A DNA stretch of 64,000 bases, taken from contig WFMF01000017.1 of NCBI GenBank assembly GCA_011033025.1, positions 124,001-188,000 of the forward strand. Direction: 5' to 3'. The position numbers and the translations under genes were made by a program. The notes below the pieces were generated by a model. That model did not search any database. It saw nothing but the letters and a program-made list of their open reading frames with translations, and had not been told where the DNA came from. The DNA is from Beroe forskalii. Lineage: Eukaryota; Ctenophora; Nuda; Beroida; Beroidae. Shown here in pieces: positions 30,001 through 64,000 of this stretch (position 1 is its first letter; each line of letters begins with the position of its first letter).

Positions 30001-33000
30001 TGAGGCTTCCACTTGAATCCAAGATAAGATTAATGTCTTACTTGCTCGGTCGGAGAGTAGCCGACACGCAATCAGCAATGATTTCTGATTGATTGTATTG
30101 ATCAAAAGCATTTAATGTTTTCATCAAACGAAATAAATCAAGGAGAATTCAGCTAAAATCTTTATTTGCATGATTAGCACCATGTGTTGATTAGTAATCC
30201 ACGGAAATAAATAATAATATCCATAATCTCACTGATCAGTGATTATAAGTGTTGCAATTATTTTGGAATTTATGTGGGTTTACCCTATTGATCATGATTC
30301 AAATGTTCAGATCAGTGCTAAGCATCCACTAATATTAATCAGGAAATTCCCATATTATCTGCCAACTTCCTCTTCTTTTACTCCCCCATGCTCACACTCT
30401 ACTCCCCTCGTCAGGGTATTGTGGAGCATGTGGAGCCACCTCCGGACCAAATGAACGATCTGAGCAAAGTCAACCGAAGAGAAGACTCCAATAATAACAT
30501 TAGCCTCAATATCCTGCCTACCTCGACCTCCGTACAGGTTTAACCTTAATAGATCCCGTCAATGAAAGCACGCTTGTTTATTATATTCAATTTAATTTGG
30601 CCATTTGATTCAAGGAATCACTCGAAGTTTGCCATCGGGGGATATCAAAACTTATCGGTTATTTTCCTTCAGATGCCCAATGGCAATGTCCAAGAAACGC
30701 CAAATATCTCCCACATCGATAACACACCGCCTGTGGCTAACGGGACAGTCCCTACTCAGGTATAAATTCTGCTAAAAATAGCCCAAAGACTTCCTGTAAC
30801 TAATTAGAAAGAGGATAGTAGAAACCTATCATGTGTTCGAAAAATTTGTCTTTGGTTTCCTTTTCGAAATTGTTCGAATTCCCTCTCTTCTGAAATGATC
30901 CCTTGTGTTTGAGTCCCCTCTCTTTTGAAATATTTCCTTGTGTTTGAGTCCCCTCTCTTTTGAAACATTTCCTTGTGTTTGAGCTCCCCTCTCCTTCGCA
31001 ACATTTCCTTGTGTTTGACTCCCCCCTCTCTTTTGAAACATTTCCTTGTGTTTGAGTCCCCTCTTTTCTGAAACATTTCCTTATGTTTCAGTCCCCTCTC
31101 TTTTGAAATATTTGAGTTTCCTCTCTTTCTGAAACATTTCCTTGTGTTTGACTTCCCCCTCCTCTGAAACATTTCCTTGCGTTTGACTTCCCCCACCTCC
31201 TCCAGGATGAGGATGAGGAGCAGGAGGAGGGAGACACCCCCGTTTCTCAGCAGGACATCACGGTGGAAAGTGTGGAGCAGGTTCTGCCCAACCGACAAGC
31301 CGACCCTCAGGTACTTACCTCGTGTACGAAGATATACCAAATTAATTAAAACACAGGATTCTCGAAGATTTTTCTGGTTTAAAACACGGTACTTGATGGA
31401 AGTTGGGCTCAAAATTAGTTTAAGATATCCATGTCAAAACGAAAGTATACGCGTCAAAACTAATCAATGCGTCAATCGTCAAGGAAATTTCATCCCAGGA
31501 AGGGCAAGAACCAGGAGACACCGATCCAGCGGAGTCCCAGGCTCCTGCCACCTACGTTCCCGAGATCAGGAAATACCAGAGAAAGTTTAATAATGAGATC
31601 CTGTGTGGTTCACTGTGGGGCGTCAATTTGTTAATAGGTGGGAAATTAGAGTAGATTTATCGCCAATCTCTGGAATATCCTTGATTATTTGCCGAATTGG
31701 GAATTTGAAAACTGGGTGAAAATGGCACAATGTCTATTGTTAGAGATTTTGGCACGAAATCGTAAGTTTCTTTGGATCGTTAAATGTACATCTTGGATCT
31801 ATTGATAGTAAGGGCTGTATTTGATATATCTGAACATGGGTGTGAAATAAATCTTAATCTAGGTTTGAGGGTTGGATCCGATAGCACATAGGTCAAATAT
31901 ATACCCAAAAAAAAGTTTCAAAAATTTTCGATGCAGAAACCCATTTTTTGGCTACACCCATTTTGGGCAGTAGCCAAAAAATGAATCAACGATATCTAAG
32001 CTTCTGTTTATGGAAAAGTTATAAATGACCACTCTAACCGACGTAGAATTGTCGGTTTTGGTACGATAGAACATGGTGTCAAGGTTCTATCTCAACCCGT
32101 TCCCTATATAATCCCAAATTTGGCCATTTTGGCTGTCCGTCAGGCCCAATTTGGGCATATGGGCAGCTCATGAGATGGAGAACATCATAACCATGTAACT
32201 CGACTGGAAATGATCGGTTTAGGAGGGTAGAGCATGGTTTCAAGGCTCTATCTCAACTCGCTCCCGAGATAATCCCCAATTTGGCCATTTTGGCTGTCCA
32301 TGAAGCCCAATTTGGGCTTTTGGACAGCTAATAATATGGAGGCCGTCAAAACTATGTAACTCGACTGGAAATGGTCGGTTTATGAGGGTAGAGCATGTTT
32401 TCAAGGCTCTATCTGAACCCGTTCCCGAGATAATCCCCAATTTGGCCATTTTGGCTGTCCATGAAGCCCAATTTGGGCTTTTGGACAGCTAATAATATTG
32501 AGGCCGTCAAAACTATGTAACTCGACTGGAAATGGTCGGTTTATGAGGGTAGAGCATGTTTTCATGGCTCTATCTGAACCCGTTCCCGAGATAATCCCCA
32601 ATATGACCATTTTGGCTGTCCATGAAGCCCAATTTGGGCGCTTGGACAACTAATGATATGGAGACCGTCAGAACCATGTAACTCGACCGAAAATGATCGG
32701 TTTATGAGGGTAGAGCATGTTTTTAAGGCTCTATCTCAACCCGTTCCCGAGATAATCTCCAATATGGCCATTTTGGCTGTCCATGAGGCCCATTTTGGGC
32801 ATTTGGAGAGCTTATGAGATGGAGACCATCGGAACCATGTAACTTCACTGGAAATTGTCGTTTTGTGAGGGTGGAGCATATTTTAAGTCTTTATCTCAAC
32901 CCGTTCCCGAGATAATTCCTAAATTTTAGATATTGGCGGACCTATGGCTCAATTGGTGCACTCAGCTGAGGTACTCAATGTAATGACTAGCTTAGTCACA

Positions 33001-62200: not shown

Positions 62201-64000
62201 GTCGTGTACGGTCTTCAGAGACATTGGGACCCAAATATAATGGAATTATGATAAAATCTGATGAAGGAATGGCCAAAAATGATGGTTTTTGGGGAATTTT
62301 CTGGTCCTCAGAGACACTTTTTTCTAATTTAACACAAGAAAAATAACGGTAATTGGATCTCAAGCTGAGCTATATTGTAGTAAATGGTGAAAAACATCAT
62401 GTATGAGATTTTCATATATTTTAAGATGATATTTTTCATTCTAACAACATTTTCAGAATTTCATGATTTTGAAAATTTTCAGCCCCGATTATTCAATCAT
62501 AAAATCCATCTGTCCATCATCATTTGTTTGGGTAGTCAGATATGAAGTTATATATCGATATTGCATGGATATTTTCACCATCTGACACTAGGAACATGGT
62601 AATATTTGATATTCCTTCCGTTAAAAAATCGAATTCCCTCCGATACGAATTAGGGGCAATCGTAAATATCGTATAAAAGCAACTAAACCTTTTTTCTACA
62701 GCTGATTTCCCATGGGATGGTCAAGTGAAGGGATTATTTTCGATCACCCTGTTAAAATTTAAGTCTTAAAGTGAATTTCTGAGATAAAAATTGAGTCTGA
62801 GTGGAAAAATTTTTTGAAGCAAAATCTATCCCTCCATCCGTTACAAAATGTTCAAACGAAAATATCTCAAAATCACTTGGTCACATCGATCTGAAAAAAT
62901 GTTGTGTACATCTCCACTTCATGGGCCAATGTATTCATGTGTACCATTTTACCTCTCTGAAACTGACAAAAAAGAAGTCTCCCACAATTTCATCCAAATT
63001 AGCATCAAGACAAATGTGTTGATTGTACGAAATTTGGTCATTTGTCGATTGTGTCTATAATTCTAACTAATTAAGGAGATATCTCTAGGTATTCCCTCTC
63101 TATGCAGTATGCAGTGTCAAAAAAGGGGGTTCCTCATGGAATTTCTTGAACAACTCTTTTGGTACAACTGATAAATGCATTTGGAATCATAAAAAGTAAT
63201 AAGTGCCAATTTACCCACAGTATGGCCATATTTACCTGAACCATATTTTTGCCCCTTTGCGCATGGTGAAAAAGAGGGTATCTGGCGAATATTTCGGAAA
63301 CAGTGCAAGCTAGCGACTTGAGACCATGATCCGACCGACCTAATGAGACCATTTCGAGCATTTTAGTGTGGTTGGTGAGCTTTCTATCTCAAAAGGAAGC
63401 TGAGATCTCTTTATTCAAAATTTGGGTTTACGTGGGGTCACAAAAAGGGGTTAGAAAAGGGGGTTCCTCATGGAATATCTTGGACAACTTTTTTTTGGTA
63501 CAACTTCAGTCTATGAACAACCGATGCATGCATTTCAAATCATAATTAGTGCCAATTTACCCATAGTATGGCCATATTCACCTGAACCATATTTTTGCCC
63601 CTTTGCGCATGAAGAAAAAGGGGTTTTTGGCCAATATCTCGAAAACGGTGCAAGATAGCCACTTGGAACTATGATCCGCCCGACCTAATGTGACCATTGC
63701 GAACATTTTAGTGTGGTTGATGAGCTTTCTAGCTCAAAAGGAAGCTGAGATAATTTTATTCAAAATTTGGGCTTACGCGGGGTCACAAAAAGGGGTTAGA
63801 AAAGGGGGTTCCTCAGGGAATATCTTGGACAACTTTTTTTGGTACAACTTCAGTCTATGAACAACCGATAAATGCATTTAACATCATAATTAGTGCCAAT
63901 TTACCCACAGTATGGCCATATTTACCAGGACCATATTTTTGCCCCTTTACGTATGGTGAAAAAGGGGTTTTTGGCGATTATCTCGAAAACCGAACGAGAT
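59209..64000. mobile_element. Large foldback transposon, TAGTAAGGG family, variant B (runs off the window)
   Basis: Starts TAGTAAGGGATGG at 59209. The left arm holds three units of ~345 bp (GTTCGCAATGGTCACATTAGG at about 59438, 59781 and a variant at 60127). The same units return in reverse complement from about 63110 to the window end (GACCATTTCGAGCATTTTAG, then GACCATTGCGAACATTTTAG ~345 bases later). Arm sequence is unrelated to copies 1 and 2. The core (about 60420-63100) holds a minus-strand coding remnant at 61.0-61.4 kb homologous to theirs and CCTTCCGTTA-type repeats at 61750-62850. The right terminus is beyond 64000. Confidence 0.75.
61020..61436 (-). CDS. Core ORF of variant B, relative of the copy 1/2 core protein
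   Basis: The frame is open from about 61436 to a stop near 61160: TPTGIRLHDILGKNLVQDV, SDSSKFLTWARGF, IPLAYWEDVIP. Further along, in another frame, are IGFIPSYSLPCSKF and VKCQSDSCIDG. These match, in order and spacing, [52 protein letters not shown] and VDCPSKVC of the other elements. The coding region is degraded. The protein family is unknown to me. Confidence 0.45.

What the first reader, a model, noticed from the sequence alone, without database searches (positions are those of the whole stretch)
31806..64000. A foldback transposon family with exchangeable tandem-repeat arms and a shared unknown protein
Three elements (31806-34635, 53584-56209, 59209 to beyond the end) start TAGTAAGGG and have inverted arms made of tandem units around a core. 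The two complete ones have 3-bp target duplications (TGA, CTT). Arms differ fully between the pair (161-bp units) and the third (345-bp units). Yet the minus-strand core coding remnants share ordered motifs: LxxIL, SKFL, IPxAY, IGFI, PCxK, VxCxSxxC. A conserved protein inside unrelated arms suggests either a real transposon-encoded factor or one captured gene spread in several vehicles. No known transposase signature was seen.
Basis: partly seen in the sequence, partly recalled or inferred. Interest (0 to 1): 0.88.

Follow-up and report, generated by a model that had tools for sequence, protein, structure and literature searches.

The report
Foldback transposons with a membrane-protein relic
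Three related jumping-DNA elements in an animal-like genome have long mirror-image arms of repeated units and carry the broken remains of the same gene, which looks more like one for a cell-surface protein than for the enzyme that moves them.

Summary
E1 (31806-34635) and E2 (53584-56209) are complete foldback elements with TAGTAAGGG termini and exact 3-bp target duplications TGA and CTT; E3 (59209 onward) is cut by the window. The shared core peptide is real: a frameshift-tolerant translated alignment of the E1 and E3 cores scores 86 (maximum of 400 shuffles 58, of 102 decoy segments 46), on the minus strand only.

The claim that the arms 'differ fully' is wrong. E1 and E3 arms are diverged homologues from base 1 (762; maximum of 200 shuffles 335). 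Their units are homologous too and share a dyad TATCTC-N11-GAGATA with identical half-sites. Arms and core look inherited together in one diverged family.

No transposase was found in the pieces searched. The coding remnant has cysteines, sequons and, in E3, a hydrophobic C-terminal segment, so a membrane or secreted cargo protein is likelier than a transposase. I read these as non-autonomous elements moved in trans by an unidentified transposase making 3-bp duplications, with the arm units as its binding sites. The protein's identity is unresolved.

The parts
31806..34635 (.). E1, complete foldback element, 2830 bp, target duplication TGA
   Evidence: TAGTAAGGG termini, flanks, inverted arms about 91% identical over 612 columns
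31806..33026 (+). E1 left arm: terminal part, 5.3 units of 161 bp, inner end
33907..34635 (-). E1 right arm (2.4 units)
33059..33470 (-). E1 core, coding remnant homologous to E3; broken over three frames
53584..56209 (.). E2, complete foldback element, target duplication CTT; core 872 of 880 aligned bases identical to E1 (20 gap columns)
59209..64000 (.). E3, foldback element cut by the window end; left arm 59209-about 60420, core about 60420-63110, right arm from about 63110
60989..61410 (-). E3 core, coding remnant homologous to E1/E2, with in-frame stops
60524..60646 (-). E3, open piece with a lysine-rich stretch followed by a hydrophobic membrane-span-like segment
   Evidence: 19-residue hydropathy 2.68; maximum of 500 shuffles 2.63; frame; limits counted by hand
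32249..32914 (.). Five dyads TATCTC-N11-GAGATA (3 exact, 2 with one mismatch) in the E1 left arm; 23 of 24 window hits lie in the arms of E1-E3
   Evidence: 0.16 expected; tandem copies are not independent
59388..59850 (.). Four dyads of the same length in the E3 left arm (2 exact, 2 with one mismatch)
61755..62845 (+). Four same-strand TCCNTCCGTTAMA motifs in the other half of the E3 core

Best explanation
E1, E2 and E3 are non-autonomous members of one diverged family of foldback DNA transposons in an animal-like genome. Shown: homologous termini and arms, exact 3-bp target duplications in the two copies where both ends are visible, and a homologous minus-strand coding remnant that is broken in all three. 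Inferred: a transposase made elsewhere in the genome and producing 3-bp duplications recognises the TAGTAAGGG ends and binds the TATCTC-N11-GAGATA dyad repeated in the arm units, so that the tandem units work as multiplied binding sites. Also inferred: the shared core is the relic of a cargo gene for a secreted or membrane-anchored glycoprotein carried by the common ancestor of both arm types, kept under protein-level selection for a time and not needed in cis for mobility.
For: Arms homologous from base 1 and in their units. Dyad half-sites identical at 12 of 12 columns between families, which 2 of 308 windows reach in an alignment that is 56% identical. Dyad 24 hits against 0.16 expected, 23 of them in these arms. 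Core homology by translated alignment on the minus strand only (86, against 32, 36 and 37 in the other orientations), whereas whole-core DNA similarity is not significant (435; 36 of 200 shuffles reach it) and that of the block, chosen afterwards, is weaker than the protein signal (290; maximum of 300 shuffles 277). This is the pattern expected of protein-coding sequence. Differences per codon position are 37, 34 and 62 of 89 codons (the alignment was chosen on protein similarity, which favours this). Young copies with an already broken core: E1 and E2 cores agree at 872 of 880 aligned bases and share two changes of frame in the coding block. Precedent for arm repeats as transposase sites: Galileo (PMC3688188, abstract and discussion read).
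Against: No transposase, autonomous copy or further copy could be examined: no genome is held, and scans of viral and prokaryotic contigs found nothing. The dyad lies in homologous arms, so part of its conservation is shared ancestry; over all 23 columns it is matched or beaten by 17 of 308 windows (itself included). The membrane segment is seen in E3 only, because the E1 and E2 cores end before it, and the region was chosen after seeing it. The protein matches no family in the searches made, so 'membrane cargo' rests on cysteines and sequons read by eye and on hydropathy. E1 and E2 left ends (212/226) are less alike than E1 left and right (240/251), which simple copying of whole elements does not predict, although part of the two left unit arrays is 98.6% identical.
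Confidence: 0.58

Rival explanations
1. The core gene was captured twice from paralogous host genes, once by each branch of the foldback family.
For: Some DNA transposons, Pack-MULEs above all, pick up host gene fragments (review PMC6431247, passages seen). Whole-core DNA is not alignable above chance between E1 and E3.
Against: Arms are homologous, so one capture before the split is simpler. No further copy of the gene was seen in the window outside the elements, which says little about the genome.
Confidence: 0.2
2. The core is the relic of a transposase or an essential accessory protein of the autonomous element.
For: It is the only coding remnant found in both branches. A protein kept through divergence in a transposon is most often its transposase (general knowledge).
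Against: No Pfam transposase match in the pieces submitted; sequons and cysteines read by eye and a hydrophobic C-terminal segment in E3 do not fit a nuclear DNA-binding enzyme.
Confidence: 0.12
3. Modular elements whose arms are swapped between vehicles around one core, or at least reshuffled among close copies.
For: The period of the arm units differs, 161 against 345 bp. E1 left end is closer to E1 right (240/251) and E2 right (237/251) than to E2 left (212/226), so the E2 left arm may have a mixed origin.
Against: The two arm types are homologous. E1 and E2 right ends are closest to each other (256/261), and part of their left unit arrays is 98.6% identical.
Confidence: 0.08
4. The core similarity is chance.
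For: The simple chained-BLAST test was reached by 9 of 1000 shuffles.
Against: Frameshift-tolerant score reached by 0 of 400 shuffles and 0 of 102 decoy segments. In a tiled scan of the window the best match outside the elements was 49, against 86 and 75 between them; one tile overlapping the end of E2 gave 50.
Confidence: 0.03

Closest known systems
Galileo (Drosophila, P superfamily, foldback-like)
   Same: Long inverted arms with internal tandem repeats; transposase sites located in the arms, including the repeats (PMC3688188, abstract and discussion)
   Different: No THAP/P transposase seen here; 3-bp duplication (Galileo's longer one is recalled); binding-site sequences were not compared
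Tetris (Drosophila virilis foldback)
   Same: Apparently non-autonomous, tandem-repeat arms, variable middle, no transposase found (PMC4079207 passages)
   Different: 8-10 bp duplications, assigned by its authors to Mutator; no conserved reading frames reported
Tm1 (Mutator/Foldback, root-knot nematodes)
   Same: Fold-back anatomy (PMC3169594 seen in search listing only)
   Different: Mutator type by its title; long duplications are recalled. PMC10045372 gives 4-10 bp for the IS256/MuDR group (passages)
Superfamilies with about 3-bp duplications: Zator, AcademX, PHIS (Harbinger and relatives)
   Same: Duplication length: Zator 3 bp, AcademX 3 or 4 bp, PHIS none to 4 bp (PMC10045372 passages)
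   Different: No transposase of any of them found; their terminal sequences were not compared

Membership tests
Foldback elements (structural class) | Long inverted arms made of tandem units around a variable core | tested here: met
Foldback elements (structural class) | Target site duplication at both ends | tested here: met
   E1 TGA, E2 CTT, 2 of 3 elements; E3 cut by the window
Mutator/MULE foldbacks | Long target duplication (8-10 bp in Tetris; 4-10 bp for IS256/MuDR) | tested here: not met
   3 bp in E1 and E2
Galileo / P superfamily | P-type transposase with THAP domain | tested here: inconclusive
   no such Pfam match in the core pieces submitted, but the elements are non-autonomous
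CACTA/EnSpm | Termini beginning CACTA or similar (recalled) | tested here: not met
   termini are TAGTAAGGG
Zator | 3-bp target duplication | tested here: met
   length for Zator
Zator | Zator transposase | not testable with these tools
   no autonomous copy; no genome held
AcademX | 3 or 4 bp duplication | tested here: met
   length for AcademX
AcademX | Academ transposase | not testable with these tools
   no autonomous copy; no genome held
Class I envelope-like fusion proteins (considered for the core) | Match to a known envelope/fusion family | tested here: inconclusive
   no match above cut-off in Pfam and none in PDB sequences; model of one 92-residue piece poor, pLDDT 45.5

The most novel reading that the evidence does not exclude
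A lineage of cut-and-paste foldback transposons that kept, through long divergence, its own gene for a membrane-anchored glycoprotein, perhaps envelope-like, as a stable non-transposase component that served spread between cells or hosts.
Probability: 0.12. Interest if true: 0.8.

Novelty: new variant of a known kind. Interest (0 to 1): 0.45.

Why it matters
[quoted passage not shown] A family with 3-bp duplications would add a further transposase type to those that give rise to the foldback form. The conserved dyad makes the idea that tandem arm units are transposase binding sites directly testable; it was shown for Galileo, and the 2013 Galileo paper calls it untested for Foldback and Phantom. 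A retained membrane-protein gene would raise the question of what such a gene does for a DNA transposon.

Tried and rejected
Arm exchange between the two arm types: rejected on arm homology; reshuffling among close copies is not excluded. The E3 unit as an internal dimer of a 161-bp-like unit: rejected (best 75 against null mean 68 and maximum 138). The 143-bp array at 42833 as a third arm type: borderline and not adopted (18 of 500 shuffles reach its score against the 161-bp unit and 36 of 500 against the 345-bp unit; the reverse-complement scores were a little higher and had no shuffles of their own). Homology of the inner arm ends of E1 and E3: none (235 of 500 shuffles reach it). A known domain in the other half of the E3 core: none in the 8 open pieces searched, out of 19 listed ORFs of 40 aa or more overlapping 61400-63120. 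Relatives in viral and prokaryotic contigs: none (some searches sought exact matches to degenerate DNA patterns only). Rfam: no match at gathering score. Structure: one 92-residue piece gave a low-confidence model, so no fold search was made. The weak Pfam matches (Peptidase_M44 0.022, Pox_EPC_I2-L1 0.089, CD45 0.63; DUF3446 0.19) are below their cut-offs and taken as chance. In one search one of the three minus frames of E3 and two of the three of E1 were given whole. A possible intron in the E1 core (donor about 33787, acceptor about 33579) and a coiled-coil-like stretch beside it were read by eye and not tested. Papers: eight searches listed no account of this family by title and abstract start; some searches listed only part of their hits (20 of 79, 12 of 20, 12 of 19, 10 of 13). 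Passages of PMC11071193 gave nothing used. This is no proof that the family is unpublished; Repbase and eukaryote genomes were not available. (promoter scan of 11 bases) was of no use. After the first check of this report I lowered the best explanation from 0.60 to 0.58 and raised the exchange rival from 0.05 to 0.08, because the left-end identities had been left out.

Full report
What is there. The window comes from an animal-like genome: two reading frames with a rhodopsin-type 7tm_1 match, and a LINE-like stretch with a PHD-finger frame and an endonuclease frame. No whole genome is held for it. E1 (31806-34635) and E2 (53584-56209) begin with TAGTAAGGG and end with its reverse complement. 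They are flanked by TGA and CTT respectively, repeated exactly on both sides. E3 begins with the same nine bases at 59209 and runs off the window. Each element has inverted arms that contain tandem arrays, 160-161 bp in E1 and E2 and 345-346 bp in E3.

The arms. They do not. Local alignment of E1 and E3 left arms scores 762; the largest of 200 dinucleotide shuffles is 335. The three other left-left or right-right comparisons made between E1 or E2 and E3 are also beyond all 200 shuffles. The alignment starts at the first base of TAGTAAGGG. The terminal non-repeat part on its own scores 213 (maximum of 500 shuffles 137), and the doubled consensus units score 256 (maximum of 500 shuffles 191). 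The inner arm ends show no similarity. So the arms have diverged from a common source and changed period. E3's unit is not a simple dimer.

Arms of close copies. E1 and E2 right ends agree at 256 of 261 bases, E1 left and right at 240 of 251, E1 left and E2 right at 237 of 251, and E1 left and E2 left at only 212 of 226. Part of the left unit arrays of E1 and E2 is 98.6% identical. Copying of whole elements explains the right arms and cores; the E2 left arm may have a mixed origin, by conversion or recombination between arms.

A shared dyad. Units of both types contain TATCTC-N11-GAGATA, 23 bp in both families. With one mismatch allowed there are 24 matches in the window, 23 of them in the arms of E1, E2 and E3; 0.16 are expected, though tandem copies are not independent. 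Between the two unit consensuses the twelve half-site positions are all identical, while the whole alignment is 56% identical; 2 of 308 windows reach that. Over the full 23 columns the dyad is less exceptional (17 of 308 windows). I read it as a candidate binding site. The model is Galileo, where the transposase's THAP domain binds near the end and again in the tandem repeats (PMC3688188, abstract and discussion).

The core. BLASTP between minus-strand frames of E1 and E3 gave two collinear hits of E = 0.005 and 0.056. A chained-hit test was reached by 9 of 1000 shuffles and 0 of 68 decoy segments. A translated alignment that tolerates frameshifts gave 86 for minus against minus and 32, 36 and 37 for the other orientations; 400 shuffles had mean 37 and maximum 58, and 102 other window segments had maximum 46. 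The match covers about 33059-33470 in E1 and 60989-61410 in E3. E2 against E3 gives 75. In a tiled scan of the window no other place exceeds 50, and the one 50 lies in a tile that overlaps the end of E2. At DNA level the whole cores are not alignable above chance (36 of 200 shuffles reach the score); the block, chosen afterwards, scores 290 (maximum of 300 shuffles 277). For comparison, the arms gave translated scores of 69 and 49 in the two matching orientations and 41 in an opposed one, without shuffles, so a similarity of DNA alone is not confined to one strand as clearly as that of the core. The core signal is thus of the kind that protein-coding sequence leaves. Codon positions differ at 37, 34 and 62 of 89 codons, with the caveat that the alignment was chosen on protein similarity.

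What the protein may be. E3 continues with sequons, seen by eye, and a lysine-rich stretch before a hydrophobic segment (mean hydropathy 2.68 over 19 residues; maximum of 500 shuffles 2.63; region chosen after seeing it). Pfam found nothing above its cut-offs in the pieces given, and the PDB nothing by sequence. The structure model of one 92-residue piece was poor (pLDDT 45.5). From memory the layout reminded me of class I envelope proteins, but no result here supports that specifically.

How it probably moves. E1 and E2 cores agree at 872 of 880 aligned bases (20 gap columns) and share two changes of frame in the coding block; each also has a break of its own. The element therefore seems to have spread recently with a dead core, and its mobility to have come from a transposase in trans. 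Duplication length argues against the Mutator type (4-10 bp for the IS256/MuDR group, PMC10045372 passages; 8-10 bp in Tetris, PMC4079207 passages) and is compatible with Zator (3 bp), AcademX (3 or 4 bp) and the Harbinger group (none to 4 bp). Two copies are a small sample, and no terminal sequences of these families were compared.

Verdict. A real, diverged family of non-autonomous foldback elements with a homologous cargo relic. It is a new variant of a known kind as far as I could check; eukaryotic repeat libraries were not available.

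Noticed in passing
42353-42472 and 42667-42785: A near-perfect 120-bp inverted repeat (99%) with about 194 bp between the arms, MITE-like, overlapping one end of the reading frame 41794-42429, which looks Penelope-like by eye (DUF5098 match 0.0084, below cut-off).
   Followed up: partly
42833-43865: A 143-bp tandem array of 7.2 copies beside that element; similarity to the foldback arm units borderline (18 and 36 of 500 shuffles reach it).
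   Followed up: partly
44400-44560: Stacked GC-rich palindromes built on GGCCCTTCGGGCC-like hairpins, seen by eye in the sequence.
   Followed up: no
47785-49386: Minisatellite region of AGCCCAAG-type units, in the most GC-rich part of the window, with an inverted part (48743-48992 against 49380-49132).
   Followed up: no
61755-62845: Four same-strand TCCNTCCGTTAMA motifs in the other half of the E3 core (0.5 expected in the window with one mismatch allowed).
   Followed up: partly
5578-6388: Two adjacent copies of about 400 bp, 95.8% identical.
   Followed up: no
41176-41397 and 44717-44939: Inverted pair of about 220 bp, 81% identical, of unknown type.
   Followed up: no
9965-9973: A solo TAGTAAGGG between two LINE-like reading frames, with no arm sequence around it in the self-BLAST; probably chance.
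   Followed up: partly
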